Positions 14,488 to 29,705 of a stretch of DNA of 52,517 nucleotides are shown in pieces (position 1 is the stretch's first letter; each line of letters opens with the position of its first letter). The notes under the pieces are model-generated. The model was not told the DNA's origin. It did not search any database and saw only the letters and a list, made by a program, of their open reading frames with translations. The translations under genes and the position numbers were made by a program. Source of the DNA: Actinomycetota bacterium (GTDB lineage Bacteria > Actinomycetota > Acidimicrobiia > Acidimicrobiales > Ilumatobacteraceae); NCBI GenBank assembly GCA_016870865.1, contig VGAC01000012.1, positions 1 to 52,517 of the forward strand, read 5' to 3'.

Positions 14488-14504
14488 GTGGTCTTCCCAA
14501 GCGA

Positions 14505-15149
14505 TCAGAGGATCGCAATGAGGAGGAGCACCAAGGCCACGACACCCGCAACGACGGGAAGCGCGCGCTTGACGATGGTGCCGCCCGCAGCCTCGATGAG
14601 GTTGATCGGTGCAACCTCGGGGGCGTCGATCTTGCGGACCACGGGCTGGCCGGAATCGGCTGTGGGTGTTGGTGCGGGCGCCGGTTCGGCTGCGGTGGGT
14701 TCCGAGGCGATGAGGTTGTTCAGGTTGTCGGAGAACTGCGCGAGCAGTTTGTCGCTGACGTCGGCGAGTGCTCCACGTCCGAATTGAGCAACCTTACCGG
14801 TGATCGAAAGGTCGGTGTTGACGTTGACCTGCGTGGAGGCTGCGTCGATGACCGTGAGCCGCGCGGTGATGACCGCCGAGGCATTGCCCTTTCCGCCGGT
14901 GTCGCGGCCTTCACCTTTGAGCACGACCTTGTAATTGACGTCGTCCTTTTCGACGAACGACGCCTGGCCCTTGAACTGGGCCTGAATCGGGCCGACCTTG
15001 ACCTTGACCGCACCGCGGTAGGTCTCACCCTCGACCTCTTGCAATTGCGCACCCGGAAGGCAGGGCGCGATGCGCTCGACGTTGGTGAGAACGTTCCACG
15101 CCTCTGCGATGGGCACGGGGACGGTGAAGGTGTGATTCAGGGGTTCCAT
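14505..15149 (-). CDS. coxG: CoxG-like SRPBCC membrane-anchored protein
   Basis: A 214-aa protein of the carbon monoxide dehydrogenase subunit G family. Residues 1-150 form the SRPBCC fold (VPVPIAEAWNVLTNVERIAP, LPGAQL, VKVKVGPIQAQFKG, FGRGALADVSDKLLAQF). A Pro/Ala-rich linker follows and a C-terminal transmembrane helix (ALPVVAGVVALVLLLIAIL). In carboxidotrophs CoxG recruits the CO dehydrogenase to the membrane. It overlaps the mocA gene by 13 bases. Its presence with coxD, coxE and xdhC supports a functional molybdenum hydroxylase module. Confidence 0.88.
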   Translation of the reverse strand: MEPLNHTFTVPVPIAEAWNVLTNVERIAPCLPGAQLQEVEGETYRGAVKVKVGPIQAQFKGQASFVEKDDVNYKVVLKGEGRDTGGKGNASAVITARLTVIDAASTQVNVNTDLSITGKVAQFGRGALADVSDKLLAQFSDNLNNLIASEPTAAEPAPAPTPTADSGQPVVRKIDAPEVAPINLIEAAGGTIVKRALPVVAGVVALVLLLIAIL

Positions 15150-15709
15150 GATTCGAGGTCCTCGATCGTGTCAATGTCGGCGGGGGTACCCACGCAGGGT
15201 ACTTGCTCGACCAGTTCGGGGCGACTGGAGATGAGGTGACGTGCGCCAAAGTCACCCGTTTTCGGCAGGTGTTGCCACCCTTCGCGGCGGATGAGGGCGG
15301 GCGTGCGGGTGGCAGAGCCGGGGTATGTGGCGACTGCGATGGTGGCCTGCGATGAGGCCACGGCGTGCCAAGCGGCGGGGTCGATGAAGGGCTGGTCGCC
15401 GAGACCGACGATGACAGCCTCGGCGCCCAGAGCGCTCGCCGCATCGATGCCGACGGCGAGCGAGGTCGCCTGGCCTTGGGCCCAGATCGGGTTGTCGACG
15501 ACGAGTACGTCGGCGGGTAGCGGGTCCAGTGCCACCGCACCCGAGACAACCATGACGTGATCGATCGGGGCGCCCTCGGCGATTGCCGTGCGGACCGACG
15601 CAATGGTGTGGTCGATGATCCGCGTGCCGTGCAAAAGCGAGAGGAGTTTGTGGCCTGGGGCGTGGAACCGCGAACCTGCGCCGGCGGCAAGGATCAGGGC
15701 CACAATCAC
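15137..15709 (-). CDS. mocA: MobA-like NTP transferase (MocA-type molybdenum cofactor cytidylyltransferase)
   Basis: A 190-aa nucleotidyltransferase. The N-terminal VALILAAGAGSRFHAPGHKL loop binds the nucleotide, and VIVGLGDQPFIDPAAWHAV gives the metal-binding Asp region typical of MocA and related enzymes that put CMP on the molybdopterin for xanthine-dehydrogenase-family enzymes. Starts at GTG; conserved sequence begins directly. Placed directly before coxG and on the same strand as xdhC, coxE and coxD, it probably supplies cofactor to the CoxL enzyme. Confidence 0.85.
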   Translation of the reverse strand: MIVALILAAGAGSRFHAPGHKLLSLLHGTRIIDHTIASVRTAIAEGAPIDHVMVVSGAVALDPLPADVLVVDNPIWAQGQATSLAVGIDAASALGAEAVIVGLGDQPFIDPAAWHAVASSQATIAVATYPGSATRTPALIRREGWQHLPKTGDFGARHLISSRPELVEQVPCVGTPADIDTIEDLESWNP

Positions 15710-15755
15710 GGCTCAAGCCTGCCCCGAAAGTGTCAGGACCGCCACTTTGCGTCGG

Positions 15756-15761
15756 TAGTTT
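15756..15761 (+). promoter_or_regulatory. Candidate leaderless -10 box for the NlpC/P60 gene
   Basis: TAGTTT lies 7 bases before the GTG at 15769, with no Shine-Dalgarno sequence. Confidence 0.45.
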
Positions 15762-15768
15762 TGTTCTC

Positions 15769-16500
15769 GTGAAACGGGGGTTTCTGCGCCGTGAGAGGGT
15801 CCGGCAGGGATTGATCGTTGTCGCGCTCGTCTGCGCCGCGACGGCCGCTTCCGGTGCCTCGCGGGTGCATGCCGGCCGTGGTGCTGTCGTCGTTCCCCCA
15901 TCGCTGCTGCAAACGACGTGGCGTTCACCCCAGATGATGACGAAAGAGGGCTTGCCCCGTCACGACGTGTTGCTCAATCGCGCGGTCGAAGCGTTGGCGG
16001 CATACGAGGCGTCCATTGCATCGAGCGACCCGAAGATCCTGAATCGTTATCAGCGTGCGCTGGCCGAAGTCGTGTCGATCGTTGCCGCACGAACGTTCGT
16101 GTCGCGCAGCGAGATGCTCGCGGCCTGGCAGACGACGTCGTCGCGGCACCAGAAGGCGATTCTCGTCGGCATGACGACTCTTGGAACCGGCTATTTGTTC
16201 GGTTCCGACGATCCCAAGAAGGGTCTCGACTGTTCAGGTCTTGTTGCCTTCGCATGGGCGGAGTCAGGGGTCGGGTTGCCGCTGAAATCAGACCGACAGA
16301 TCGACCGCTCACGCGAGGTGTCGCGCGAGGCGGCACGGGCCGGTGACATCGTCGGCTATCCGGGCCACACGATGATCTATCTCGGTGTGGGTGACATCGT
16401 GCTGCACTCCGCGCGCCCGAATTTGGGTGTGCGTGTGGGGCCGATCAACTGGAAGGAATCGAGGAATATCAAGTTCGCCGACCCGCTACCGGTCGACTAG
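15769..16500 (+). CDS. Secreted NlpC/P60 cysteine peptidase (peptidoglycan hydrolase)
   Basis: A 243-aa exported protein. The N-terminus has basic residues then a hydrophobic segment (GLIVVALVCAATAASGASRV), a likely signal peptide. The C-terminal NlpC/P60 domain has the catalytic Cys in KKGLDCSGLVAFAWAESG and the His in YPGHTMIYLGVGD. It should cleave peptide cross-links in cell-wall stem peptides. The middle helical segment (about 45-125) is a plausible coiled region. The GTG at 15769 is favoured over the open frame from 15730. It is the only plus-strand gene among the cox accessory genes, and its TAG stop shares CTAG with the converging xdhC stop. Confidence 0.87.
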   Translation: MKRGFLRRERVRQGLIVVALVCAATAASGASRVHAGRGAVVVPPSLLQTTWRSPQMMTKEGLPRHDVLLNRAVEALAAYEASIASSDPKILNRYQRALAEVVSIVAARTFVSRSEMLAAWQTTSSRHQKAILVGMTTLGTGYLFGSDDPKKGLDCSGLVAFAWAESGVGLPLKSDRQIDRSREVSREAARAGDIVGYPGHTMIYLGVGDIVLHSARPNLGVRVGPINWKESRNIKFADPLPVD

Positions 16501-17639
16501 TTCGTGTGAATCGGGCCGCTGGAATCGCGCAGTGACGGCGCGTTGCGGCCGGTGCGGCGTGCGATGATTTCCGCACAGATTGAAATGGCGGTTTCTTCGG
16601 GGGTGCGTGCGCCGAGGTCGAGTCCGATCGGTGACATCAGTCGCGCAAGGTCGTTGGGGTTCGTGACCCCGGCTTCGGCGAGACGTTCGAGACGCTTCGT
16701 GTGCGTCTTGCGCGAACCCATCACGCCGACGTAACCAACGCGAGTGGCCAGTGCACCCTGCACGGCGGGAACGTCGAATTTTGCATCGTGGGTGAGGATG
16801 CAGACTGCGTCGCGGGGCCCGAGTGTTTTGCCCTCGGCGGCGAACAGGTCGCCCGGCCACGACACGACCACGTTGTCGGCCATGGGGAAGCGGCGGCGTG
16901 TGGCGAAGACTTCGCGGGCGTCGCACACCGTGACGCGGTATCCGAGAATTTTCGCGACTCGGGCAAGTGCCGCGGTGAAGTCGACCGCACCGAAGATCCA
17001 CATTTGCGGGGCGGGCGCAAAGCTCTCGACGAACACCTTGACCGTGGGTGTATCGACGAGGTCCTCGGGCGTGGTTTGGCCCTCGGGTCCGTAGTGGCGG
17101 ACACCCGTGGTGCCCGCCTCGAGTTCTCCGAGGGCGTCGCGCACGACGATGCGGTCGAGTTCGGCGTTGCCGAGCGAACCGCCGGGTGTCTCGCCGGGGG
17201 TGATCAGCATCGTCGCGCCGGTGTGTGGTCCGTCGATGACGGTGGCAACGGCGACGGGTTCGTGCGAGCGGATGCGCGCATCGAGAATGTCGAGTGCGGC
17301 GGTTCCGGCTCGGGTGCCGATGAAGTTGTCGGCGGGCTGGATGAATAGGTGAATGGTGCCACCGCACGTGAGACCGACCGCAAAGGCCTCATCGTCGGAA
17401 TATCCGAACGTGACGACACGGGACGGGGCATCGCCGGCGAGGATGGCGAGGGCCTCGGAGACGACGGCGCCCTCCACGCAACCACCGCTGACAGAACCAA
17501 CGACCTGGCCCGAGGCACTGACGGCCATGGCGGCGCCGGGTTCGCGTGGCCCCGAGCCCTCGATGTCGACGACGCGTGCGATGGCAAAGCGTTCAGCGTT
17601 GCGGCGCCAGGCCGCGAACTCGGGGAGCAGATCGCGCAT
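16497..17639 (-). CDS. xdhC: XdhC/CoxI-family molybdenum hydroxylase maturation factor
   Basis: A 380-aa two-domain XdhC protein. The N-terminal XdhC/CoxI domain carries VSGGCVEGAVV, and the C-terminal Rossmann domain carries VGVMGSRKTHTKRLERLAEA and the closing SPIGLDLGARTPEETAISI. Relatives bind molybdenum cofactor and promote its sulphuration and insertion into xanthine dehydrogenase or CO dehydrogenase. The ATG at 17639 follows a TACACT -10 by 7 bases, so it may be expressed from its own leaderless promoter as well as from coxD-coxE read-through. Confidence 0.88.
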   Translation of the reverse strand: MRDLLPEFAAWRRNAERFAIARVVDIEGSGPREPGAAMAVSASGQVVGSVSGGCVEGAVVSEALAILAGDAPSRVVTFGYSDDEAFAVGLTCGGTIHLFIQPADNFIGTRAGTAALDILDARIRSHEPVAVATVIDGPHTGATMLITPGETPGGSLGNAELDRIVVRDALGELEAGTTGVRHYGPEGQTTPEDLVDTPTVKVFVESFAPAPQMWIFGAVDFTAALARVAKILGYRVTVCDAREVFATRRRFPMADNVVVSWPGDLFAAEGKTLGPRDAVCILTHDAKFDVPAVQGALATRVGYVGVMGSRKTHTKRLERLAEAGVTNPNDLARLMSPIGLDLGARTPEETAISICAEIIARRTGRNAPSLRDSSGPIHTN

Positions 17640-17646
17640 GGGAGCA

Positions 17647-17652
17647 AGTGTA
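17647..17652 (-). promoter_or_regulatory. Candidate leaderless -10 box for xdhC
   Basis: Minus-strand TACACT, exactly 7 bases before the ATG at 17639, in the short gap after coxE. Confidence 0.45.
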
Positions 17653-17658
17653 CGGGCG

Positions 17659-18756
17659 TCAGTCGAGACGTGAGATGGCGCGACAGAGACGGTCGAGTGC
17701 GTCGATCGAATGGCCCTCGACGAAGTCGTCGACGTGTGGCAATGCGGCGGCCATCCCCTTGGCGAGCGGGGCATAGCCTTTGGTCACCTTCAGGGGGTTC
17801 ACCCAGATGGTGCGGAACGCCGCGCGGTGGAGACGCTGCATCTCGGCCCCGAGAAGTTCGGGATCACCGCGATCCCACCCGTCGGAGAGGATGACGAGGA
17901 TTGACCCACGGGCGAGGCCGCGCACGCCCCATTCGTCGTTGAACGTGCGCAGGCAGTCACCGAGGCGCGTGCCACCGCTCCAGTCCGAGACGTTGCGTGA
18001 GGCCCGGGTGATTGCCTCGTCGGGATTGCGTGTCGAGAGTTCCTTCGTCAGGCGGGTGAGGCGCGTTCCGAAGGTGAATGCCTCGACGCGCTGGCGGCCG
18101 GCCACTGCAGCATGCACGAAACGCAGGAAGGCCCGCGAGTAAGGCTCCATCGAACCGGATATGTCGAGCAGCAGAACGAGCCGGCGTAGTTTGTCGTCGG
18201 GCTGCCGCCAGTGGCGTCGAACGGGCTCGCCGCTCGAGCGCAGCGATGCGCGAACCGTGCGACGCAGGTCAGGGATGCTGTGGGTGCCGCGCGCAGAACG
18301 CAGCCGCAGCGAGCGACGGCGGGGGCCGGCGAGTCTCAGGCGCGTCATCAATTCTCGCGCCAGGTGCATTTCGTCGTCGGAGTATTCGGCAAAGTCCTTT
18401 TCGCGCAGCGTCTCAATGGCCGACCACCGCAGGGTGAAGGTGATGTCGGCTTCGTTCTGCGTCGTCGAATCGCTGTCGGGGGCTTCCTCGCCGTCGTCGG
18501 TGGCCAATGCAATGCGAATCGTCTCCGCTGACTCTTCCGTCACGTTCGCCGAACGTGCATCCCAGAAGACGGCAAAGGCCCGGTCAAAAGTCTCGAATTC
18601 CTCGGGGCGACGCACCAGCGTGGCGCGGCCCGACCAGTACACGTTCTTGCGCTCGCCCAGGCCGAGCCGGTGCAACGCGTCGACGAAGGTCACGACGCTG
18701 TCGACCGGGGCGACGATGCCGACACCGCGCAACACGCGCGCAAAAGCCACGGCCAT
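17659..18756 (-). CDS. coxE: CoxE-like von Willebrand factor A protein
   Basis: A 365-aa VWA-containing CoxE-family protein. The metal-ion-dependent adhesion site reads LLLDISGSMEPYSRAFLRFV (DxSxS), followed by SGGTRLGDCLRTF, which supplies the MIDAS Thr. In carboxidotrophs CoxD (MoxR ATPase) and CoxE together assemble the [CuSMoO2] centre. The start is uncertain: ATG 18756 is 31 bases past the coxD stop, while a GTG at 18807 would add 17 residues and overlap coxD. The order coxD-coxE-xdhC on one strand supports a maturation role. Confidence 0.87.
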   Translation of the reverse strand: MAVAFARVLRGVGIVAPVDSVVTFVDALHRLGLGERKNVYWSGRATLVRRPEEFETFDRAFAVFWDARSANVTEESAETIRIALATDDGEEAPDSDSTTQNEADITFTLRWSAIETLREKDFAEYSDDEMHLARELMTRLRLAGPRRRSLRLRSARGTHSIPDLRRTVRASLRSSGEPVRRHWRQPDDKLRRLVLLLDISGSMEPYSRAFLRFVHAAVAGRQRVEAFTFGTRLTRLTKELSTRNPDEAITRASRNVSDWSGGTRLGDCLRTFNDEWGVRGLARGSILVILSDGWDRGDPELLGAEMQRLHRAAFRTIWVNPLKVTKGYAPLAKGMAAALPHVDDFVEGHSIDALDRLCRAISRLD

Positions 18757-18787
18757 CGCCTCGGCCTCGTTGGGCGAGGCAATCGAA

Positions 18788-19720
<933 letters not shown>

Positions 19721-19726
19721 GCGCAA

Positions 19727-19758: not shown

Positions 19759-21180
19759 TCACGAGTCGAAACCGAGTCCGAGACGATCAAGGGAGCGGAG
19801 CCAGAGGTTTCGTTTGCCGGTTCTGTCTTCGCGGCGCATCGACCAGCGTGTTGCCTGGATGCCGATGAAACGGAACGGCTCGGGTGGGAAGGGAAGCGGC
19901 TTGTCCTGCACGAACTTGGTCGAGGAGGCCTTGGTGCGGCGACCGTCGAGCTGATCGACCAGCACTTCCGCGCCGAAACGCGACGAGCCCGTGCCCAGTC
20001 CGGTGTAGCCCAGTGCATAGGCGACGCGGCCACCCATTGCACGGCCCCAAAACACCGTGAAGCGCGTGCACGTGTCGATGGCCCCGCCCCACATGTGGCT
20101 AAAGCGCACGTCGTCCAACTGCGGGAACGTCTCGAAGAAGTGGCGCGAGAGAAGGGCCCACGACTCGGGCCGTGATTCGAGCTCGGTGTTCACTCTTCCG
20201 CGGAAGTAGTACACCGCGTCGTAACCACCCCAGAGAATCCGGTTGTCGGCGGTGAGTCGGTAGTAGTGGAACTGATTCGGAATGTCGGAGAGACCCTGCC
20301 GATTCTTCCAGCCGATCGATTCAAGCTGGTCGTCGGTCAGCGGTTCGGTGACCATGCAGTAGTCGTAGACCGGAATGATGTAGTGGCTGAGGCGTTTGAG
20401 CAGCGGTTTGAACGCGTTGGTACACAGCGCTACCTTGCCGGCACGCACGCGGCCCAGTGAGGTCTCGACGAGCACACCGACGCCGTCACGTTCAAGGGAT
20501 GTCGCCCTCGTGTCCTCGAAGATGCGCACGCCGAGTGATTCGGCGACTCGCTTCAATCCCCAGGCGAGGCGTGCGGGGTCGACGAGAGCCGCGCGTTCCT
20601 TGCGCCACAGGCCACCTACGTAGGTGGGTGAGTGAATCTGTGCCTGCATCGCCTCGCGGTCGAGCCACTCGACGTTGTGGCCAAGCGAGCGCAACTGGTG
20701 GAAGTCCTCGCGCATCTCGTCGCTGTACGACGACGGATGGAATGTCGTGGCGACATCGATGACCCCCGTACGCTCGAAGTCGCAATCGATGTTGTAGCGG
20801 CGAATCGCCGCCTCGATTTCGTTTAGGTTGTGGAGACCGAGTTCTTCGAGAACGGGAATCTCGTCGGCAAAGCGTTGCTGGGCGTTTGCAATGCCGTGGG
20901 TCAGGGACGCCTCCATGAAACCGCCGTTGCGGCCGCTTGCCGCCGAGCCCACCTGTTGGGCGTCGAGGAGAATGATGTCCCGCGACGGGTCACGTTCCTT
21001 GGCGATGATGGCTGTCCACAGACCGGTATAACCGCCGCCGACGATGCACAGGTCGCAGCTCTCGGTGCGCACCAGCGTCGGGTTGGCGTCGGGTTCGTCG
21101 GCGTCGTCGTACCAGTACGGATATGGATCCGCATCGGCGATCGCATCTAGATGACGCGGATCAATCGCCGGGTTTTCCAT
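19759..21180 (-). CDS. FAD-dependent amine oxidase (DAO family, PuuB-like)
   Basis: A 473-aa flavoprotein of the D-amino-acid-oxidase superfamily. The dinucleotide motif is CDLCIVGGGYTGLWTAIIAK, followed by SAASGRNGGFMEASLTHG, the pattern of gamma-glutamylputrescine oxidases and related amine dehydrogenases, and the C-terminal FAD contact GRVAYALGYTGLGTGSSR. It probably oxidises an amine or N-methyl amino acid. The ATG at 21180 has GGTGGGGTGA upstream. It sits immediately before coxD-coxE-xdhC on the same strand and is divergent from an SDR gene. The link to the molybdenum enzyme is inference from position. Confidence 0.83.
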   Translation of the reverse strand: MENPAIDPRHLDAIADADPYPYWYDDADEPDANPTLVRTESCDLCIVGGGYTGLWTAIIAKERDPSRDIILLDAQQVGSAASGRNGGFMEASLTHGIANAQQRFADEIPVLEELGLHNLNEIEAAIRRYNIDCDFERTGVIDVATTFHPSSYSDEMREDFHQLRSLGHNVEWLDREAMQAQIHSPTYVGGLWRKERAALVDPARLAWGLKRVAESLGVRIFEDTRATSLERDGVGVLVETSLGRVRAGKVALCTNAFKPLLKRLSHYIIPVYDYCMVTEPLTDDQLESIGWKNRQGLSDIPNQFHYYRLTADNRILWGGYDAVYYFRGRVNTELESRPESWALLSRHFFETFPQLDDVRFSHMWGGAIDTCTRFTVFWGRAMGGRVAYALGYTGLGTGSSRFGAEVLVDQLDGRRTKASSTKFVQDKPLPFPPEPFRFIGIQATRWSMRREDRTGKRNLWLRSLDRLGLGFDS

Positions 21181-21252: not shown

Positions 21253-21999
21253 ATGGATCTTGGAATTTCCGACAAAAGGGCAATTGTCGCGGCGGGAACC
21301 GCGGGTCTGGGTCTGGCAACCGCGGTCAGTCTTGCGCGTAATGGTGCAAAAGTCGTGATTTGTGGTCGCGATGAACAACGTTTGCAGCACGCAATCGATG
21401 CTGTGGGTCACGGATGTGTCGGGATTCAACATGACGTTGCGACGCATGCGACGGCGATGCAATTCGTGACAAAGGCAATCGACGCATTGGGTGGTGTCGA
21501 CATTCTGGTGACAAACGGTGGTGGGCCGCAGCCCGGATCCGCTCTCGACACACCCATCGACAAATATCCCGCGGCGCTGGAACTGAGCCTGTTGTCCGTC
21601 ATCGGCATGTGCCAGGTCGCCCTGCCGAACATGCGTGCGCAGAAGTGGGGGCGCATCATTGCGATCACATCGGTGTCGGTCAAGCAGCCGATCGCCACGC
21701 TGGCTCTGTCGAACACGGCACGCGCCGGTGTCACCGGGTACCTGAAGTCGCTCGCCCGCGACGTTGCAAGTGAGGGTGTCACGGTGAACTCCGTGCAGCC
21801 CGGTATCCACCTCACCGACCGCATCAAGGTCGTGTCAGGGGACACGCTCTCGGCACAGGCGCTCGGGATTCCCGCGGGCTTCATCGGCGACCCGGCCGAC
21901 TTTGGTGAGATTTGCGCGTTCTTCGCCAGCGAGCAAGCGAAGTACATCACCGGGGCACACCTCAATGTGGACGGCGGCCAGTACGCCGGCCTCCAGTAA
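21253..21999 (+). CDS. Short-chain dehydrogenase/reductase with altered catalytic motif
   Basis: A 248-aa SDR. The cofactor loop is VAAGTAGLGLATAVSLA, NGGG replaces the usual NNAG, and the C-terminal YITGAHLNVDGGQYAG is standard. The catalytic YxxxK is not conserved: 13 residues after Ser140 the motif reads Ser153-Asn-Thr-Ala-Arg157. An S-N-x-x-R form occurs in a subset of proteins annotated as 3-oxoacyl-ACP-reductase-like, so this is probably a real subfamily and not a decayed gene. It is likely co-transcribed with the Dabb gene 90 bases downstream. Confidence 0.83.
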   Translation: MDLGISDKRAIVAAGTAGLGLATAVSLARNGAKVVICGRDEQRLQHAIDAVGHGCVGIQHDVATHATAMQFVTKAIDALGGVDILVTNGGGPQPGSALDTPIDKYPAALELSLLSVIGMCQVALPNMRAQKWGRIIAITSVSVKQPIATLALSNTARAGVTGYLKSLARDVASEGVTVNSVQPGIHLTDRIKVVSGDTLSAQALGIPAGFIGDPADFGEICAFFASEQAKYITGAHLNVDGGQYAGLQ

Positions 22000-22089
22000 G
22001 GATTTCGGCGCGCCCAGATGCAGGTTTCGGCAAGATTTACGCCGAGAAATACGATCGCCCGAAGTGGCAATGTCAATGGAGGAGAAGAA

Positions 22090-22389
22090 GTGTTCATTCA
22101 TAACGTGTTCTTCAAATGGAAAGCGGGCACGTCGGCGGCGGAGATCGCCCAGATGGCTGCGGCACTCGGCACGCTGCCCGGTGCGGTTCCGTCGATTCGC
22201 TCATACACGTTCGGTGCAGACCTTGGCCTTGGACAGCCGGGAGCGAGTTGGGACTTCGCGATTTTGGCTCAGTTTGAGGACGAAACAGGGTGGCGTGAAT
22301 ACCTCTCGCACCCCACACACGAAGCGGTTCGCGATGAGATCCTGGCTCCGCGTATTGCCGAGCGTGCGACAGTTCAGTTCAGCGTCTGA
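22090..22389 (+). CDS. Dabb (stress-responsive A/B barrel) domain protein
   Basis: A 99-aa dimeric alpha/beta-barrel protein: FIHNVFFKWKAGTSAAEIAQ at the start, then SYTFGADLGLGQPGASWDFA and LSHPTHEAVRDEILAP, which is the standard Dabb layout. Such proteins include small hydrolases and cyclases, and many have no known function. GTG at 22090 was chosen because a strong GGAGG (22079-22083) lies just upstream; the longer frame to 22018 is unlikely. Its last 11 bases overlap the converging PAP2 gene. Probably works with the SDR upstream. Confidence 0.8.
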   Translation: MFIHNVFFKWKAGTSAAEIAQMAAALGTLPGAVPSIRSYTFGADLGLGQPGASWDFAILAQFEDETGWREYLSHPTHEAVRDEILAPRIAERATVQFSV

Positions 22390-23302
22390 ATCTCGGTGTA
22401 AATCTTGACGTTTTCTGCACCTGGGTGCGCCGAGAACCCTCGTAGTGGGACCAGAAGCGGAACGCGATCAGCACGTACGCAACCCCGAGGATCCCGTCGG
22501 AGACGAAGTGCTCACCGAAGTAGACGAGTGTCAGCATCATCAACGCAGGGAAGACCACAACGACTGGTCGCAGCCAATTTGGCATTTGTTTTGCAAAGAA
22601 AAGGACGACGATCAGCGAGAAGGCGACGTGCAGGCTGGGAACTGCAGCGACCGGATTCACCACCTCGCGGCCACGTTCAATGACTCGTGACACCGTGTCG
22701 AGGCCGAGGTGCGTCCAGCCGCGCACCGTTGGCCGCGCGATCGCATCCATTCCGCCGTCCTTTGCGACCATCCACGGTGGTGCGGCGGGAAAGACGACGA
22801 AGGTGGCGACACCGAGCAGCAAAACCGTGGCCAGACGGCGGACGTATTGCACCCAGCGGTCACGGTTGCGGGCCCACAGTGCGATTGCGATACCCATCGG
22901 CACACAGAAGTGCGTGAAGTAGATGAGTGAACCCGCCACGTCGTACCAGCGCACCGAACCGGCCTCGTAGAAGTGTCGTTGCATCCACACGTTCGGGTCG
23001 GTGCCGAAGAACAACAATCGATCCACATCGCGGGGAAGGGTACGGTTCACGGGAAAACCAATCTGGTCGGCCATACCGCGCGAGTAGTCATAGGCGAACC
23101 ACATGGCGACGAACAACGAGAAGTCGCGCAGCATGAGGAACCAGTCGCGCCGCGGCCGGCCAACCGCGCCGCAAGCGAACCCGCCGAGCGCCCACGACAA
23201 CACGGCGATGCGATCGGTGGGCAGGCCATAGACGAACGCCGACCACACAAAGACGACGACATAAAGGCAGAATGCGGCGACCCGTAGGTGCCGGGAATCC
23301 AT
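22379..23302 (-). CDS. PAP2-superfamily membrane protein (inositol-phosphotransferase-like)
   Basis: A 307-aa integral membrane protein with about six hydrophobic segments. PAP2 active-site motifs are visible: VAAVPSLHVAFSLIVVLFF with the catalytic His, and VYFGEHFVSDGILGVAYV with the second His and Asp. The absence of a classical KxxxxxxRP first motif and the overall layout fit the Aur1/Ipt1-like (PAP2_3) branch, which transfers phosphoinositol-type head groups. A role in cell-envelope lipid synthesis is likely. It follows coxM by 21 bases on the same strand, but no functional link to it is evident. Confidence 0.8.
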   Translation of the reverse strand: MDSRHLRVAAFCLYVVVFVWSAFVYGLPTDRIAVLSWALGGFACGAVGRPRRDWFLMLRDFSLFVAMWFAYDYSRGMADQIGFPVNRTLPRDVDRLLFFGTDPNVWMQRHFYEAGSVRWYDVAGSLIYFTHFCVPMGIAIALWARNRDRWVQYVRRLATVLLLGVATFVVFPAAPPWMVAKDGGMDAIARPTVRGWTHLGLDTVSRVIERGREVVNPVAAVPSLHVAFSLIVVLFFAKQMPNWLRPVVVVFPALMMLTLVYFGEHFVSDGILGVAYVLIAFRFWSHYEGSRRTQVQKTSRFTPRFRR

Positions 23303-23323: not shown

Positions 23324-24148
23324 CTACCTGGATGCTTCTTCCAGCGCACGACGCACGAGAACCGAAGCGAGGTGCTTGCGGTAGTCGCTCGTCGCGTTCA
23401 GGTCGGACTGTGGCTCGGCCTCGTTTGAAGCCTTTTGAGCCGCATCGGCAACCGATGCACCCGATGCAATGGCCGAGGCGACGCTGGAAGCCAGCACCGG
23501 AGTCGAACCCATGTTGACGAGACCGACACCAGATTCGCTGCCACGGCGCCATGCCGCAACACCCACGATCGCCCAGTCTTGGGCGCGACGATTGAACTTC
23601 TGGAAGCTCCAGCCCGCACCGTTCATCTTCGGCACGCGGATCTCGGTGAGCATCTCGTCGGGGCGCAATGCACTCTCCAAGAAGCCCTTGTAGAAGTCCT
23701 TCGCGGCGATTTCACGCGTACCCGACGCACCCTGCACGACGTAGGTCGCACCGAGGGCGAGGGTGGTCGCGGGAAGGTCGGAGGCCGGGTCGGCGTGGGC
23801 GATCGAACCACCGATCGTGCCGCGGTGACGCACCTGCGGGTCGCCAACGTGCCAGGCCGCATGTGCGAGCAACGGCACGTGCTGAGCAAGCACCGGCGAC
23901 TTCTCGACGTCCATGTGGCGCGTGAGCGCTCCGATGGCGATGTGGTCACCGGCGTCACGGATGTAGGAGAGATCGGAGAGACGACCAATGTCGACGAGAA
24001 CGCTGGGCGCTGCGAGGCGCAACTTCATGAGCGGCAGGAGGGAGTGGCCACCGGCGAGGAACTTTGCGTCTTCGCCGTACTCGGACACAAGGCTGATGGC
24101 CTCGGCGGCGGAGCCGGCACGCTTGTAGTCGAAGGCTGCGGGGAGCAT
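23324..24148 (-). CDS. coxM: Molybdenum hydroxylase FAD subunit (CoxM family)
   Basis: A 274-aa FAD-binding subunit of xanthine-dehydrogenase/CO-dehydrogenase-type enzymes. FAD motifs are LAGGHSLLPLMKLRLA near residue 30 and RGTIGGSIAHADPASDLPA near residue 110, followed by the CO-dehydrogenase flavoprotein C-terminal domain. It takes electrons from the CoxS iron-sulphur clusters and passes them to an external acceptor. Its ATG overlaps the coxS stop (ATGA). The gene order S-M, separated from L by an ABC exporter, is unusual. Confidence 0.9.
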   Translation of the reverse strand: MLPAAFDYKRAGSAAEAISLVSEYGEDAKFLAGGHSLLPLMKLRLAAPSVLVDIGRLSDLSYIRDAGDHIAIGALTRHMDVEKSPVLAQHVPLLAHAAWHVGDPQVRHRGTIGGSIAHADPASDLPATTLALGATYVVQGASGTREIAAKDFYKGFLESALRPDEMLTEIRVPKMNGAGWSFQKFNRRAQDWAIVGVAAWRRGSESGVGLVNMGSTPVLASSVASAIASGASVADAAQKASNEAEPQSDLNATSDYRKHLASVLVRRALEEASR

Positions 24149-24609
24149 CAGTTGCCACCCTTCGCGCATGCGAGAACCGACTGGATGATGTTGTGGTAAC
24201 CGGTGCAGCGGCAGAGATTGCCCTCGAGGCCGACACGAACTTCGTCCTCGGTGGGGTTGGCATTTTCTTCGAGCAATGAAATTGCGGCCATCACCATGCC
24301 CGGTGTGCAGTAACCGCACTGCAGACCGTGGTTCTGCATGAATGCTTCCTGCATCGGGTGCATCTTGCCGCCCTTGGCAAGGCCCTCGATCGTGGTGATG
24401 TTGCAACCATCGGCCTGTGCTGCCAGGATCGTGCAGCTCTTCACGGCTTCGCCGTTCAAATGCATCGAGCAGGCGCCGCAGCTCGACGTGTCGCAACCGA
24501 TGTTGGTACCGGTCAGCGCGAGATTCTCACGCAGGTATTGCACGAGCAGAGTGCGAGGTTCAATCTCGCTCTCGCGCAGTTCTCCGTTCACGGTGAGGCT
24601 GATCTTCAT
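24148..24609 (-). CDS. coxS: Molybdenum hydroxylase 2x[2Fe-2S] subunit (CoxS family)
   Basis: A 153-aa iron-sulphur subunit. The plant-ferredoxin-type cluster is bound by Cys39, Cys44, Cys47 and Cys59 (GCDTSSCGAC), and the second by Cys98, Cys101, Cys133 and Cys135 (CGYCTPG and NLCRCTGYHNI). It shuttles electrons from the molybdenum site in CoxL to the FAD in CoxM. The ATG at 24609 has AAGGGGAG upstream. All eight Cys ligands are present, so the subunit looks functional. Confidence 0.93.
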   Translation of the reverse strand: MKISLTVNGELRESEIEPRTLLVQYLRENLALTGTNIGCDTSSCGACSMHLNGEAVKSCTILAAQADGCNITTIEGLAKGGKMHPMQEAFMQNHGLQCGYCTPGMVMAAISLLEENANPTEDEVRVGLEGNLCRCTGYHNIIQSVLACAKGGN

Positions 24610-24666: not shown

Positions 24667-24688
24667 GTTCCTGCTAGCCGACGCGGGT

Positions 24689-25471
24689 TTAGTCGCGTTC
24701 CAGGCCACGCAGGCCGCGGTAAGCAAACGTCAGGGTGAGTAGGGATCCGCCGGCGAGAGCCAGAACACCACCCCAGACCCCGTTCCAGGTGACGTCACCC
24801 AGGAATCCCTGTCGGGAGAGGCGCAGCACGTTGGTGGCGGGATTGACCCGGGCCACCCCGTGGAGCCAGCCGCTCATGACAAAAAGGGGCGTCTGGGCGC
24901 TCGACAGGAACATCACGAGGAAGAGAGTCAACTGCATGATTGCCGCGCCGCGCATGTCGCGAAAGCGGTAGGCGATGCCCAGGCCCCAACCCGCCGACAC
25001 CGTGGCGAGGCCGATCGACGCGAGGTACAGACATCCGAGGCCGACGACCCCGCTGGTGAGACGCGCACCGAACGCGAAGCCGATGACCATCACCATGGTC
25101 ACGACGATGACGGTGCGCACCCACGTCATGACGAGCGGCCCGACGATGAGCGCCGAGCGGGGTGTCGGTGACATGCGCAGGCGATCGAAGAAACCTGTTT
25201 CGATGTCGCGGATCGTGGTGAAGCCAAGGCCAACGCCGGCGAATGCCGAGCCCATGACGACGGCAAGCGGAAGGTACCAGTTGATGCTGCGATCGGTGGG
25301 AAAGCCGGGCAGTTTCGTGATGGCGAAGAACGTGCCGGAAAACGCGATGGCCTGGAAGATCGGCATGGCGAGGGTGGGAATGAACGTCGAGGGAAGGCGG
25401 CGCATGTTGCGCATGCCGCGAGCCGACAGCGCGCGCGACGAACGAAGGGCCGACAAGTGAGTGACCGTCAT
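24689..25471 (-). CDS. ABC-2 type transporter permease (DrrB-like), second
   Basis: A 260-aa membrane protein with about six transmembrane helices (ALIVGPLVMTWVRTVIVVTM, GCLYLASIGLATVSAGWGLG, LTLFLVMFLSSAQTPLFVMS). This is the ABC-2 exporter permease fold of the DrrB kind; the typical SSAQTPLF and WLHGVARVNPATNVL stretch precedes the last helix. Its ATG overlaps the stop of the first permease. The two permeases likely form a heterodimer driven by the ATPase at 26268-27224. Substrate unknown. Confidence 0.85.
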   Translation of the reverse strand: MTVTHLSALRSSRALSARGMRNMRRLPSTFIPTLAMPIFQAIAFSGTFFAITKLPGFPTDRSINWYLPLAVVMGSAFAGVGLGFTTIRDIETGFFDRLRMSPTPRSALIVGPLVMTWVRTVIVVTMVMVIGFAFGARLTSGVVGLGCLYLASIGLATVSAGWGLGIAYRFRDMRGAAIMQLTLFLVMFLSSAQTPLFVMSGWLHGVARVNPATNVLRLSRQGFLGDVTWNGVWGGVLALAGGSLLTLTFAYRGLRGLERD

Positions 25472-26271
25472 TGCGCCGCCACCCTTCGTGCAAGCGAGCG
25501 CAGGGCGAGTGCAAACGACACCACCATCATGCCGGCCGGCACGAGCAGCGCCTTGGCGCACGCCGAGGCCGAAAAGCCGGTGATGCACAGGTCACGGAGT
25601 CCCTCGATGAGGTACGAGATCGGGTTCACGTTGGCGATGTGGCGGTATGCGCCGCTCATCGTTTGGCGTGGAAAGAAGGCACTCGAGAAGAAGAGTGCGA
25701 TGAAGACGAGCGGGAACACGCCCTGCACCGCCTCGGAGGAACCGGTGCGCAAGGCCATGGCGGCCATGAAGCCCCCAACGGCGATCGCGGTGAGGCCCCC
25801 CGACACCAACATGACGATCGCGCCCGGGACCCCGCTCTTGACGTGCAGTCCGAAGGGGATCAACAATGCGGTGAAGAACGCGGTTTGCGCCGCACCGTAG
25901 GCGGCGGCACCCATGAGACGGCCGAGGAGAATGCCGAGCCGCGACGTCGGAGAGGCGAGCAAGCGATAGAAAAAGCCGTTCTCGATGTCGGTGGCCAGTG
26001 CGGACCCGCTTTGCACCGAGCCGAACAGCACGCCCTGCACGATCGTGCCCGCGAGGCTGAAGTCGAGGAACGAATCGACCTTCGGAAAGCCCGGCAAACC
26101 TGTGGCACGGCCGAACGACGACGTGCCGAGCGCGGCGAAGAACAGCGGAAACGTGATCGAGGGGATGATCAACGCCGGTTGGCGCACGAGGGCCATGATC
26201 GAACGCCTCGACATGGCGGCCGTCTGGCGCACCGCACCCACACGAGCGGTGCGGCTGATTGTGGCGGTCAC
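25468..26271 (-). CDS. ABC-2 type transporter permease (DrrB-like), first
   Basis: A 267-aa ABC-2 permease paralogous to the next one. After a short cytoplasmic helix (RRSIMALVRQPALIIPSITF) it shows about six membrane segments, with FFSSAFFPRQTMSGAYRHIA and NVNPISYLIEGLRDL before the final helix. It starts at a GTG that overlaps the ATPase stop (GTGA), so the three genes are translationally coupled. Export of a lipid, drug-like compound or cofactor-related molecule is possible. Confidence 0.85.
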   Translation of the reverse strand: MTATISRTARVGAVRQTAAMSRRSIMALVRQPALIIPSITFPLFFAALGTSSFGRATGLPGFPKVDSFLDFSLAGTIVQGVLFGSVQSGSALATDIENGFFYRLLASPTSRLGILLGRLMGAAAYGAAQTAFFTALLIPFGLHVKSGVPGAIVMLVSGGLTAIAVGGFMAAMALRTGSSEAVQGVFPLVFIALFFSSAFFPRQTMSGAYRHIANVNPISYLIEGLRDLCITGFSASACAKALLVPAGMMVVSFALALRSLARRVAAQ

Positions 26272-27224
26272 TTCTCGCCCTCGAGACGGTGGCCCGTCGC
26301 CTCGGCGAAGACGTCGTCGAGGCTGGGTTCGTTCAATTCGAGGTGGTGCACGACGATGCCCTGTTCGTCGAGTCGACGAACGACATCGGTGACGGCGCGC
26401 GCACCGGCGGTGAGGCCGACACCGAGCGTGCCCTCGGCGGTTGGGCGCATGTCGCCGAACTCACCGAGCACGCGCGCGGCGGATTCGCTGTGGTGCGCAT
26501 CAACGTTGATCAGGAGGGTCGGTGCACCCACCTTGGCCTTGAGGTCGCGCGGCGCACCTTCGCGCACGATCTTGCCCCCGTCGATGATGGCGATGCGGTC
26601 GGCGAGTTGGTCGGCTTCTTCGAGGTACTGCGTGGTCAGCAACACCGTCGTACCCTCTTTGTTGAGGCGACGGACCTCCTCCCAGAGGGTGACGCGGCTC
26701 ATCGGGTCGAGTCCGGTTGTCGGCTCGTCGAGGAACAGGACGATCGGCTCGTGGATGAGAGACAGTGCGAGGTCGAGTCGCCGACGCATGCCGCCGGAAT
26801 AGGTACCGACACGGCGGTCGGCCGCCGCGGTGAGACCGACACGCTCGAGAAGTTCGCCCGCCCGCGACTTCACACCGGCGGGCGCGATGCCGTACAACAC
26901 GGCCTGCAGTTCGAGTAATTCGTTGCCGGTCATCAGCGGATCAATCGCGGCATCCTGCAGTGCGACACCGATGTTGCGGCGCACTTTGTCGGCCTCGCGC
27001 ACGATGTCGAATCCCGCGACCCGCGCCATGCCCGAAGTGGGACGCAGCAAAGTGGTGAGCATGCGCACGGTCGTCGACTTTCCCGCACCGTTGGGCCCGA
27101 GGAAGCCGAAGATCTCGCCCTCACGTACCTCGAGGTCGACACCGTCGACGGCGCGAACAGGATTGTCTGACGCCCCAAAGTGGCGCGCCAACTGCGACGC
27201 AACGATCGGGGCATTCGATGACAC
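26268..27224 (-). CDS. ABC transporter ATP-binding protein (DrrA-like)
   Basis: A 318-aa ABC ATPase of the daunorubicin-resistance DrrA group. Walker A is FGFLGPNGAGKSTTVRML, the signature is VGTYSGGMRRRLDLALSLIH, Walker B is IVLFLDEPTTGLDP, and the C-terminal 90-residue extension is the DrrA-type regulatory domain. GTG start. It lies 86 bases downstream of coxL with its own promoter candidate. Together with two permeases it forms an exporter inserted between coxL and coxS. Confidence 0.9.
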   Translation of the reverse strand: MSSNAPIVASQLARHFGASDNPVRAVDGVDLEVREGEIFGFLGPNGAGKSTTVRMLTTLLRPTSGMARVAGFDIVREADKVRRNIGVALQDAAIDPLMTGNELLELQAVLYGIAPAGVKSRAGELLERVGLTAAADRRVGTYSGGMRRRLDLALSLIHEPIVLFLDEPTTGLDPMSRVTLWEEVRRLNKEGTTVLLTTQYLEEADQLADRIAIIDGGKIVREGAPRDLKAKVGAPTLLINVDAHHSESAARVLGEFGDMRPTAEGTLGVGLTAGARAVTDVVRRLDEQGIVVHHLELNEPSLDDVFAEATGHRLEGEK

Positions 27225-27240
27225 GGGGATTCCTATCTGG

Positions 27241-27260: not shown

Positions 27261-27270
27261 GCGCAGCGAG

Positions 27271-27300
27271 ATACTACGCCTGCCGTGGAACTTTCGTCAG
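27271..27300 (-). promoter_or_regulatory. Candidate promoter for the ABC exporter genes
   Basis: Minus strand: -35-like CTGACG (27300-27295), 18-base spacer, -10 TAGTAT (27276-27271), giving a leader of roughly 40 bases. It suggests the exporter can be expressed apart from coxL. Confidence 0.4.
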
Positions 27301-27310
27301 GACTGTCGCG

Positions 27311-29599
27311 TCAGGACTTGGCCGACATGATGGCGGCCCACACACGCTCCGACGTCGCGGGCATGTCGATGTGCTTGACGCCAAGATGCGACACCGCGTC
27401 GACAACGGCCGACTGCACGGCAGGGGTCGAACCGATGGTGCCCGACTCGCCGATGCCCTTGGCCCCGAGCGGGTTCAGGTACGTCGGTGTCTCCATGTGC
27501 ACGACCTCGAAGCTCGGCAGTTCCGCCGCCGAGATGAAGGCGTAGTCGGCGAGGTTCGACGTGATCGGGTTCCCGTCGGAGTCGTAGCGCACTTCCTCGA
27601 GCAATGCCTGCGCGGTGCCCTGTGCGACACCACCGTGGATCTGGCCCTCGAGGAGAAGCGGGTTGAGAACGCGCCCCGCGTCGTCGAGTGCAACGTGGCG
27701 CAGGTGACGCACCTTGCCGGTTTCGGTGTCGACTTCGACGACCGCCACGTGTGCGCCGAAGGGGAACGACGCGCCCTCGGCGGTGAAGCGCGACTCTTGT
27801 GAGAGACCGCCATCACCCTTTGCGGCGGTTGCGAGATCCGCCCACGACTTGGCAATGGCGGGCGTACCCGAGACGTGGAACACGCCGCGGTCGCGGTCTA
27901 GTTCGATGTCGGCTTCGTTGGCCTCGAGCAGTCGTGCGGCGAGTTTCTTGGCCTGGTCGACGAGTTCGATCGATGCAAGATTGACAGCAGCACCGCCCTG
28001 CTGCAGCGATCGCGATCCCATGGTTCCGCCACCGACGGGAACGAGATCGGTGTCGCCCCAGACGAGGTCGATCATGTCCATCGGGATGCCGGTCTGTTCC
28101 GAGGCGATCATCGACCACGACGTGGCGTGGCCCTGGCCGTGTGGGCTGGTGCCGGTGTAGACGATGGCGCGACCGTTTTCCTGAACCTCGATCTTCGCGG
28201 TTTCACCCATCGGCGGAACGCCACCGGTGATTTCGACGTAGATCGAAACACCGACGCCGAGCTGTTTCACGTCACCCGACGCGCGGCGCTTGGCCTGCTC
28301 GGCGCGCAGCGACTTGTAGTCGGCGGCGGCGAGCACCTTGTCGAGTGCGGTTTCGTAGTCACCCACGTCGTAGGTCTGGCCGATCACGGTGGTGTGCTTG
28401 TCGAGGAACTTCGGAATCAGGTTCATGCGACGCACGTCGGCAGGGTCCTTGCCGATTTCGAGGGCGAACATGTCCATTGCACGCTCGGCGGCCGCGGTCG
28501 CCTCGGGGCGACCCGCACCGCGGTAGGCGGTTGTCGGAGTCGTGTTCGTGACGATCGATGTGGTGCGGCACTCGACCTTGGGGAACGCGTACACGGCCGA
28601 CGACATCGGACGGGTCATGAACGGGGCGAGGATGGTTCCCATGTCGACCCAGGCACCGCAGTCCTGCAGCACGTGCATCTGGTAGGCGAGAACCTTGCCG
28701 TCGCGGTTTCCACCGATGGTGACGTACTGGATCTGCCCGCGACCGTGGCCCATGCCGAGCATCGACTCGCTGCGCGTCTCGCGCCAGCGCAACGGGCGGC
28801 CGAGCTTCTTGGACATCATTCCAAGGAGGCTCTCTTCGGGGTAGACGCCGATCTTTGCGCCGAAGCCGCCACCCACGTCAGGGGTGATGACGCGGAGTTG
28901 ATCCGCGGAAAGGCCGAGGGTGGCCATGATGCCGTCCTTGGCGCCCTGTGCGTGCTGGGTGCTGAGCCACTGGTAGAGGCGTCCATCGACCCATGCGACC
29001 GCCGAGCCGCGCACCTCGAGCGGGCACGGTGCGACACGCTGGTTGATGAAGCGACCCTTGACGACGACTTCGCAGCCCTCGAAGAGGGCATCACCGGTGT
29101 TGTCGGGCATACCGAGTGCAGTCGAGTCGAACACGACGTTGCTGCCGCATTCCTCGAAGATGATGGTCGAGCTCGTCATCGCCTCTTCCATGTCGACGAG
29201 AACGGGGAGCATGTCGTAGTCGACGACGACCATTTCGGCCGCGTCTTCGCCCTGTTCGCGCGTTTCGGTGACGACGGCGGCGACGGGTTCACCGACGAAG
29301 CGCACCTTGTCGCTGGCGAGGAGAGTGCGCTTGGCGCCCGGGTTGAAGGTTGCGGGCATGGCCTGTAGTTCGAGATCGGCCGCGGTGTAGACGGCGATGA
29401 CGCCGGGTGCCGACAGCGCATCGGACGCGTCGATGCCGATGATGCGACCGTGCGCGACGGTGCTACGGACGTAGGTGACGTGCGCTGCGCCCGCCAACAA
29501 CGGTTCGCCGAGAAGGTCGTCGACATATTCGCCGCCGGTTGTCAGGAATTTCGGGTCTTCCTTGCGGATGACGCGGTTGCCGAGAATGCTTCCAGCCAT
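27311..29599 (-). CDS. coxL: Molybdenum hydroxylase large subunit (form II CoxL-like)
   Basis: A 762-aa xanthine-dehydrogenase-family molybdopterin-binding subunit. The active-site loop reads AYRGAGR at residues 358-364, the form II (BMS-type) signature; true form I CO dehydrogenases have AYxCSFR with a Cu-binding Cys. DVGGGFGAKIGVYPEE binds the cofactor, and the catalytic Glu is in KGIGESGTIGS near the C-terminus. Expected partners CoxS and CoxM lie 2.7 kb downstream beyond an ABC exporter. It could oxidise a small organic substrate and not CO. The ATG at 29599 has AAGGGA upstream. Confidence 0.9.
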   Translation of the reverse strand: MAGSILGNRVIRKEDPKFLTTGGEYVDDLLGEPLLAGAAHVTYVRSTVAHGRIIGIDASDALSAPGVIAVYTAADLELQAMPATFNPGAKRTLLASDKVRFVGEPVAAVVTETREQGEDAAEMVVVDYDMLPVLVDMEEAMTSSTIIFEECGSNVVFDSTALGMPDNTGDALFEGCEVVVKGRFINQRVAPCPLEVRGSAVAWVDGRLYQWLSTQHAQGAKDGIMATLGLSADQLRVITPDVGGGFGAKIGVYPEESLLGMMSKKLGRPLRWRETRSESMLGMGHGRGQIQYVTIGGNRDGKVLAYQMHVLQDCGAWVDMGTILAPFMTRPMSSAVYAFPKVECRTTSIVTNTTPTTAYRGAGRPEATAAAERAMDMFALEIGKDPADVRRMNLIPKFLDKHTTVIGQTYDVGDYETALDKVLAAADYKSLRAEQAKRRASGDVKQLGVGVSIYVEITGGVPPMGETAKIEVQENGRAIVYTGTSPHGQGHATSWSMIASEQTGIPMDMIDLVWGDTDLVPVGGGTMGSRSLQQGGAAVNLASIELVDQAKKLAARLLEANEADIELDRDRGVFHVSGTPAIAKSWADLATAAKGDGGLSQESRFTAEGASFPFGAHVAVVEVDTETGKVRHLRHVALDDAGRVLNPLLLEGQIHGGVAQGTAQALLEEVRYDSDGNPITSNLADYAFISAAELPSFEVVHMETPTYLNPLGAKGIGESGTIGSTPAVQSAVVDAVSHLGVKHIDMPATSERVWAAIMSAKS

Positions 29600-29624
29600 G
29601 TGTTTCCCTTCGAGACAGATGCCT

Positions 29625-29699
29625 AATTGACCACGGAGATTACCCAAGGGCCCGAGCGAGCCCACAACGGGGCGCCCAAGGTTCGGCGCGGAATTGACC
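29625..29699. repeat. Direct repeat upstream of coxL
   Basis: AATTGACC (GGTCAATT on the coding strand) occurs at 29625-29632 and 29692-29699, 67 bases apart, within the 106-base gap between ftsB and coxL. These may be regulator half-sites for coxL. Confidence 0.25.
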
Positions 29700-29705
29700 G
29701 GCCCC

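What the first reader, a model, noticed from the sequence alone, without database searches (positions are those of the whole stretch)
14488..29705. A 15-kb molybdenum-hydroxylase module sits inside the conserved eno-ftsB-DUF501-ppx block
In actinobacteria eno, ftsB, DUF501 and ppx are usually contiguous on one strand. Here eno-ftsB (31514-29706) and DUF501-ppx (14487-13044) keep their order and strand, but coxL, an ABC exporter, coxS, coxM, a PAP2 protein, SDR, Dabb, amine oxidase, coxD, coxE, xdhC, NlpC/P60, mocA and coxG lie between. coxG runs into DUF501 with a 17-base gap. This looks like a precise insertion or a lineage-specific locus. No integrase or flanking repeats are seen.
Basis: partly seen in the sequence, partly recalled or inferred. 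Interest (0 to 1): 0.68.

Follow-up and report, generated by a model that had tools for sequence, protein, structure and literature searches.

The report
Ancient cox locus splitting housekeeping genes
A 15-kb set of molybdenum-enzyme genes sits between four housekeeping genes that are neighbours in most related bacteria, but it is an old, inherited feature of this lineage rather than a recent insertion, and its enzyme is probably not a true carbon-monoxide dehydrogenase.

Summary
In detail: eno-ftsB and DUF501-ppx keep order and strand, with 15.2 kb of cox-type genes between them. The insertion idea holds only at depth. Outside the window's order, eno and DUF501 lie under 2.2 kb apart in 88 of 93 same-contig genomes of the class, and under 5 kb in 44 of 49 of the rest of the phylum. 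Within the order they are 7-76 kb apart in 23 of 36. The genus has one gene order in 7 of 7 fully visible loci. In family f1 a cox gene lies between in 18 of 18 same-contig genomes. Site CoxL1 genes group together across eight families; CoxE gives weaker, mixed support. Ends carry no tRNA, no convincing repeats and no compositional shift. So this is a long-established locus under purifying selection. The enzyme is form II (AYRGAGR, no copper-ligand cysteine), below the cut-offs for CO and glyceraldehyde dehydrogenase. Its substrate is unknown; I favour an aldehyde. Side result: relatives keep one coxS-coxM pair at the site with zero to three coxL genes. The window's genus lacks a second coxL that many family members have.

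The parts
13044..14111 (-). ppx ORF (Ppx-GppA phosphatase), downstream end of the split block
   Evidence: Pfam PF02541 1e-44
14023..14487 (-). DUF501
   Evidence: Pfam PF04417 9.4e-23
14505..15149 (-). coxG, 17 bases from DUF501
   Evidence: Pfam PF06240 8.5e-21; gap to DUF501 within 60 bp in 87 of the 98 loci where coxG was the nearest upstream hit
15137..15709 (-). mocA-like MobA-type NTP transferase
   Evidence: Pfam PF12804 3.7e-22; TIGR03310 68 bits, below cut-off 186
15730..16500 (+). NlpC/P60 peptidase, convergent; among family-coded loci seen only in f1
   Evidence: Pfam PF00877 6.6e-11
16497..17774 (-). xdhC/coxI maturation factor (ORF; real start probably near 17606)
   Evidence: Pfam PF13478 2e-42, PF02625 2.1e-31
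17659..18861 (-). coxE (VWA domain)
   Evidence: Pfam PF05762 1.5e-61; trees
18788..19726 (-). coxD (AAA+ ATPase)
   Evidence: Pfam AAA_5 2.7e-12; MadB family 290 bits, below cut-off 475
19759..21180 (-). DAO-family FAD-dependent oxidoreductase (ORF opens at 21810)
   Evidence: Pfam PF01266 3.4e-59; Phn_aa_oxid 243 bits, below cut-off 633
21253..21999 (+). SDR oxidoreductase
   Evidence: Pfam adh_short_C2 4e-44; an SDR also sits by coxD-coxE-xdhC outside the order
22018..22389 (+). Dabb (A/B barrel) protein
   Evidence: Pfam PF07876 7.5e-17
22379..23302 (-). PAP2_3 membrane phosphatase-like protein
   Evidence: Pfam PF14378 5e-28
23324..24148 (-). coxM (FAD subunit)
   Evidence: Pfam PF00941 1.3e-51, PF03450 3.9e-14
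24148..24609 (-). coxS (2Fe-2S subunit); in many relatives a second coxL lies between coxS and coxM, but not here
   Evidence: Pfam PF01799 7.6e-33
24689..25471 (-). ABC-2 permease
   Evidence: Pfam PF01061 1.4e-16
25468..26271 (-). ABC-2 permease
   Evidence: Pfam PF01061 2e-24
26268..27224 (-). ABC ATPase, DrrA type
   Evidence: TIGR01188 349.5 bits, cut-off 312.45
27311..29599 (-). coxL1, form II molybdopterin subunit, active-site loop AYRGAGR
   Evidence: Pfam PF20256 2.6e-78, PF02738 1.6e-66; translation; tree
29706..30203 (-). ftsB (DivIC)
   Evidence: Pfam PF04977 3.5e-9
30231..31514 (-). eno, upstream end of the split block
   Evidence: Pfam PF00113 1.3e-128

Best explanation
The interval is a long-established cox locus that entered the ftsB/DUF501 junction in or near the common ancestor of much of this order (probably Acidimicrobiales) and has since been inherited vertically, with local gain and loss of genes. 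It encodes a form II molybdenum hydroxylase: CoxL1 (molybdopterin), CoxS (2Fe-2S) and CoxM (FAD), with a maturation set (CoxD, CoxE, XdhC, MocA, CoxG). By its loop it lacks the copper-ligand cysteine of CO dehydrogenase. Most likely it hydroxylates a small organic substrate and passes electrons through Fe-S and FAD to the respiratory chain; an aldehyde, possibly one made by the neighbouring flavin oxidase, is my best guess. Shown: gene content, position, conservation in genus and family, constraint, loop motif. Inferred: single entry, enzyme type. Guessed: substrate (about 0.35) and electron acceptor.
For: Contiguity elsewhere: eno-DUF501 under 2.2 kb in 88 of 93 same-contig genomes of other families of the class, against 11 of 36 in the order; under 5 kb in 44 of 49 others of the phylum. 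Occupancy: cox genes between in 18 of 18 same-contig f1 genomes; same order in the window and 6 of 6 fully visible congeners. Trees: 28 site CoxL1 rows fall in one set (98*) over f1, f12, f13, f14, f18, f19, f22, f24 and one named locus, with one row from an unplaced contig and one extra f13 copy inside; the 12 site CoxL2 rows fall in one set (100*) over f1, f13, f18 and named loci, with two rows from elsewhere inside. All 23 f1 site CoxE rows in the tree and 16 named loci form one set (96*). Constraint: dN/dS against congener G001 0.051 coxL, 0.029 coxM, 0.080 coxS, 0.030 DAO. Enzyme: AYRGAGR; in the alignment with solved CO dehydrogenases the Cys is Gly, while GES and the Gln are kept (residue roles recalled); glyceraldehyde dehydrogenase is the best NCBIfam model for L, S and M.
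Against: The full CoxE tree needs four site/elsewhere changes and puts six CoxE of other orders beside site rows of f5, f7 and f14 (97*). One side of a branch is reached only after nine rows are dropped, six of them 'elsewhere' rows, and with unstarred support 86. L133, titled Ilumatobacteraceae, has eno-ftsB and DUF501 5.4 kb apart with no cox gene found; its family code is not known. In eight named loci only NlpC-mocA-coxG are seen upstream of DUF501. Some families have no cox here (f20: 11 of 11 same-contig genomes contiguous; f8, f15, f21), so single entry needs several losses. Unrelated genes sit in the junction in f28 and f23. CoxL2, unlike CoxL1, scores best against CO dehydrogenase (656 bits, cut-off 991). 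No substrate evidence exists.
Confidence: 0.72

Rival explanations
1. Several independent insertions: the ftsB/DUF501 junction is a hotspot in this order, and cox clusters entered it more than once from related genomic copies.
For: The eno-DUF501 distance ranges from 1.7 to 76 kb in the order. Unrelated cargo sits there in f28 (MFS, histidine kinase, acyl-CoA dehydrogenase, GGDEF-EAL) and f23 (protein kinase and ORFs without match). CoxE rows of other orders mingle with site rows in the full tree.
Against: CoxL1 at the site falls in one starred set over eight families, and the order L1-ABC-S-(L2)-M-D-E-xdhC-mocA-coxG is shared by loci of f1, f12, f13 and f24.
Confidence: 0.24
2. It is a functional aerobic CO dehydrogenase (form II) used to scavenge CO.
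For: coxL, S and M with coxD, coxE, coxG and xdhC; best solved relative is a CoxL, 8uem, 1.4e-147. Form II has been called a CO dehydrogenase system, for example in Aminobacter carboxidus (abstract in the listing, PMC7645674).
Against: AYRGAGR instead of the form I motif; TIGR02416 527 bits against a cut-off of 991. Form II activity is described as unresolved (passage of PMC13240472). Where form I CoxL was seen in relatives (2 genomes), it lay away from this site.
Confidence: 0.15
3. A recent horizontal or mobile-element insertion in this strain or genus.
For: The contiguous block in other actinobacteria; tight ends; one weak 24-nt repeat pair outside both ends.
Against: Same locus across the genus, family f1 and other families; no tRNA, no annotated integrase, no compositional shift.
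Confidence: 0.02
4. Assembly or binning chimera.
For: The genome is a 42-contig assembly.
Against: The same order occurs in six other fully visible assemblies of the genus; a similar locus, with a second coxL, lies in the single-contig genome G023.
Confidence: 0.01

Closest known systems
Form II CoxL / 'putative CO dehydrogenase' cox clusters
   Same: Mo-binding L subunit with AYRGAGR, 2Fe-2S S subunit, FAD M subunit, coxD, coxE, coxG and xdhC maturation genes
   Different: coxL is separated from coxS-coxM by an ABC exporter; many relatives have an additional CoxL between coxS and coxM; position between ftsB and DUF501
Form I aerobic CO dehydrogenase (8uem, 1ffv, 1n5w)
   Same: Overall sequence of L; GES and the Gln loop align
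   Different: The Cys and Phe of the form I loop are Gly and Gly; 527 bits against a cut-off of 991
Glyceraldehyde dehydrogenase alpha/beta/gamma (NF041018-NF041020)
   Same: Best curated NCBIfam model for all three window subunits
   Different: All three below the equivalog cut-offs (611.9/790, 276.8/350, 234.3/290)
coxD-coxE-xdhC-SDR block of other orders of the class (L212-L220)
   Same: coxD 66-71%, coxE 51-58% identical; SDR close by in 9 of 9, Dabb found in 3 of 9
   Different: No coxL, S, M, eno or DUF501 found in the up to 20 kb fetched, 9 of 9; in L214 the upstream side is not in view

Membership tests
Form II CoxL molybdenum hydroxylase | AYRGAGR active-site loop in an L subunit with both MoCo-binding domains | tested here: met
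Form II CoxL molybdenum hydroxylase | 2Fe-2S and FAD subunits and maturation genes in the same cluster | tested here: met
Form I aerobic CO dehydrogenase | (A/S)YRCS(F/L)R loop with the copper-ligand cysteine | tested here: not met
   Gly at the Cys position
Form I aerobic CO dehydrogenase | TIGR02416 equivalog cut-off | tested here: not met
   527.3 bits against 991.15
Glyceraldehyde dehydrogenase | NF041018/NF041019/NF041020 equivalog cut-offs | tested here: not met
   611.9/790, 276.8/350, 234.3/290
Aldehyde-oxidising Mo hydroxylase (works like) | Activity on an aldehyde | not testable with these tools
   -
Mobile genomic island | Integrase, tRNA or attachment-site repeats at the ends | tested here: not met
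   one weak 24-nt pair (83%) outside both ends taken for chance; not every ORF searched for integrases
Mobile genomic island | Composition unlike the flanks | tested here: not met
Mobile genomic island | Patchy presence among close relatives | tested here: not met
   7 of 7 fully visible loci of the genus; 18 of 18 same-contig f1 genomes; L133, of uncertain family, lacks it
Order-level ancestral locus | Site genes form one clade across families | tested here: inconclusive
   CoxL1 98* with one row from an unplaced contig inside; CoxE four changes with all rows, one side of a branch only after nine rows dropped, 86

The most novel reading that the evidence does not exclude
The locus is a docking place for interchangeable catalytic subunits. 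One coxS-coxM pair and one maturation set stay at the ftsB/DUF501 junction while CoxL genes come and go: none in 4 fully visible loci that keep S and M; one in the window's genus; two or three form II CoxL with a single S and a single M in 7 loci (of 41 stretches examined, chosen by me). CoxL1 and CoxL2, about 40% identical, would then share partners and give one scaffold two substrates.
Probability: 0.25. Interest if true: 0.5.

Novelty: new member of a known kind. Interest (0 to 1): 0.3.

Why it matters
The gene order eno-ftsB-DUF501-ppx becomes a marker for the history of one order of actinobacteria. The locus offers a widespread, vertically inherited form II Mo hydroxylase of unknown substrate in a lineage with small genomes, so the open question of what form II enzymes do could be tested in one defined group. 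It also warns against scoring CO oxidation from these cox genes.

Tried and rejected
Recent or mobile insertion: rejected by occupancy in genus and family, no tRNA, no convincing repeats and ordinary composition. CO dehydrogenase proper: not supported by motif or cut-offs. What fills the junction where cox is absent: f28 and f23 hold unrelated genes and several ORFs without a Pfam match (20 ORFs of eight loci were scanned), so no shared alternative cargo was found. Promoter/terminator scan: no more hits than in shuffles (2 vs 2.3; 10 vs 13.8). Relocation of a lost coxL2 within the window's genome: not found among its five MoCoBD_2 matches (four genes); the other form II CoxL (L147) falls on a separate branch. 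Literature: six searches; in their listings (titles and starts of abstracts) I saw nothing on this locus and its position. I read passages only of PMC13240472, PMC4735515 and PMC10305171. The last reports CO dehydrogenases in Ilumatobacteraceae MAGs (it defines coxL as form I), which I did not follow up.

Limits of counts: for I transcribed only 22 in-order CoxE matches from the table, itself cut, so 'CoxE between' (18) is a lower bound. The 50 two-ended loci include regions I chose to fetch, so 27 of 50 is not a frequency estimate. In one search I left out duplicate or short loci (L001-L030, L067-L073, L092, L095, L102, L145, L148) and rows under 300 residues (which removed, for example, L035, L036 and L045); of the 20 'elsewhere' regions, 13 gave a coxE hit and 12 entered the tree. 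One search left out L150 and rows under 500 residues. One search dropped L047, L152, L156 (site) and L172, L177, L181, L183, L190, L191 (elsewhere). In one search one flank gene (GNAT) was in a wrong frame; one search repeats the test without it. The mfd rows are spurious (those loci do not hold mfd) and dS was saturated for many genes against L041. Gaps rest on guessed starts; a few are clearly wrong (such as -655). Form I CoxL was looked for only in the fetched stretches.
Full report
What is there. The window is contig C12 of a 1.95-Mb, 42-contig genome, 96% complete. The nearest loci in the named collection are MAGs titled Actinomycetota, Acidimicrobiaceae, Acidimicrobiales or Ilumatobacteraceae bacterium, one marked acIV; the window's family code f1 also holds a 4.83-Mb single-contig genome. 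I take it to be a freshwater member of Ilumatobacteraceae, order Acidimicrobiales; that is an inference, since the tools show group codes, not names. SDR, Dabb and NlpC/P60 are on the + strand, the rest on the - strand. The 'amine oxidase' is a DAO-family flavoprotein.

Is the block normally contiguous? Mostly yes. I compared positions of DUF501 (PF04417) and enolase (PF03952). Of 105 genomes of other families of the class, 93 had both on one contig; in all 93 eno was upstream on the same strand, and 88 were under 2.2 kb apart, median 1.7 kb; 3 were at 5 kb or more, two of them f28. In a phylum sample of 80 genomes, 64 had DUF501; of the 57 of these outside the class, 49 had both on one contig, 44 under 5 kb and 5 at 7-24 kb. 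In the window's order, 36 of 44 had both on one contig, all 36 in that orientation: 11 under 2.2 kb, 2 between 2.2 and 5 kb, 23 at 7-76 kb. CoxE lay between them in at least 18.

Is the cox locus recent? No. In the genus, the window and six of six other fully visible loci have the same 18-gene order from eno to coxG, and five further congeners with a broken site agree as far as they can be read; one congener (G004) gave no DUF501 match. In f1, 18 genomes have eno and DUF501 on one contig, and in 18 of 18 a coxL- or coxE-type gene lies between. Among 50 loci with both ends in view, partly chosen by me, 27 carry coxL, S, M, D or E between eno and DUF501, five more keep only xdhC, mocA and coxG of the cox set, and the rest have none or weak hits. 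Where coxG is the nearest upstream hit, its gap to DUF501 is within 60 bp in 87 of 98 loci, with a 4-base overlap in 22, so translational coupling is likely there. Against: L133, titled Ilumatobacteraceae, has ftsB and DUF501 5.4 kb apart and no cox gene found; and eight named loci show only NlpC-mocA-coxG upstream of DUF501 in the stretch held. In f1 genome G107 the coxE gene is 39 kb further on, so those eight may have cox genes out of view.

Descent. The 28 CoxL1 rows next to ftsB or eno fall in one set with 98* support across f1, f12, f13, f14, f18, f19, f22, f24 and one named locus; a row on an unplaced contig (G018:C27) and an extra f13 copy lie inside it. The 12 rows of CoxL2, the copy between coxS and coxM, fall in one set with 100* support over f1, f13, f18 and two named loci; two rows found elsewhere (G018, G019) lie inside it. 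All 23 f1 site CoxE rows in the tree, with 16 named loci, form one set (96*). Against a single origin, the full CoxE tree needs four site/elsewhere changes and puts six CoxE of other orders beside site rows of f5, f7 and f14. With nine rows dropped (three site, six elsewhere) the 63 site rows lie on one side of a branch against those six, support 86, unstarred. Single entry is favoured, not shown. Outside the order, in nine of nine loci looked at (f35, f36, f38, f39), coxD-coxE-xdhC has an SDR close by and no L, S, M, eno or DUF501 in the stretch fetched. So part of the cassette, with the SDR, also exists apart from this position.

Composition and constraint. GC is 0.641 inside and 0.651 in six flanking genes; the codon-use difference is no larger than in random splits of the genes (0.649 of 2000). 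dN/dS against congener G001 is 0.03-0.25 for the site genes, 0.051 for coxL1, so they are under purifying selection.

The enzyme. CoxL1 has the loop AYRGAGR. In alignment with solved CO dehydrogenases the GES motif and the Gln are kept, while the Cys and Phe of the form I loop are Gly (residue roles recalled). It scores 611.9 against glyceraldehyde dehydrogenase alpha (cut-off 790) and 527 against CO dehydrogenase (cut-off 991); CoxM and CoxS are likewise nearest to glyceraldehyde dehydrogenase subunits and below cut-off. CoxL2 of a relative scores 656 against CO dehydrogenase and 647 against glyceraldehyde dehydrogenase, both below cut-off. A recent survey calls form II activity unresolved and notes AYRGAGR in other molybdenum hydroxylases (passage of PMC13240472). 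The window's genome has one more form II CoxL with its own S and M (L147); none of its MoCoBD_2 genes read showed a form I loop. Two relatives, of those whose extra coxL regions I fetched, have form I CoxL (AYRCSFR), both away from this site. A CO-oxidation annotation of this locus is therefore not warranted.

Unexpected variation. In the 41 stretches examined no stretch had more than one coxS or coxM, but CoxL varied. Seven loci (L042, L044, L045, L048, L052, L062, L156) have two or three CoxL with one S and one M. Four fully visible loci (L055, L056, L107, L168) have S and M and no CoxL. One (L154) has CoxL1 without S and M. The window's genus has CoxL1 only, its coxS and coxM being adjacent. 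Either CoxL1 and CoxL2 share partners, or one of them works with subunits coded elsewhere.

Verdict.

Noticed in passing
L042, L044, L045, L048, L052, L062, L156: Two or three form II CoxL genes with a single coxS and a single coxM at the same locus.
   Followed up: partly
L055, L056, L107, L168: coxS and coxM between eno and DUF501 with no CoxL found in the interval.
   Followed up: partly
G107:C1 1135577-1212133; G119:C35 10080-61617; G087:C17 313140-349255: The eno-DUF501 distance grows to 36-76 kb in some order members; in G107 about 39 kb separate coxE from DUF501, so the junction seems to keep collecting genes.
   Followed up: partly
L212-L220: In other orders of the class coxD-coxE-xdhC has an SDR close by (9 of 9) and sometimes Dabb (3 of 9), with no coxL/S/M in the stretch seen: the SDR may belong to the pathway rather than be a bystander.
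   Followed up: partly
L195 (G016:C39), L210 (G024:C61): Form I CoxL (AYRCSFR) in two f1 relatives with 1.7-2.0 Mb genomes, away from the site.
   Followed up: no
L133:3876-9917: A genome titled Ilumatobacteraceae has ftsB and DUF501 about 5.4 kb apart with a fn3/DUF4214 protein and no cox genes.
   Followed up: partly
L160:1872-4091, L160:6084-8045, L053:12972-16163, L168:2444-6244: Large ORFs without a Pfam match sit between eno and DUF501 in relatives.
   Followed up: no
L069, L072, L073, L111, L136: Public MAGs titled Acidobacteria or Bifidobacterium breve carry DUF501 loci of this lineage: probably misnamed records.
   Followed up: no
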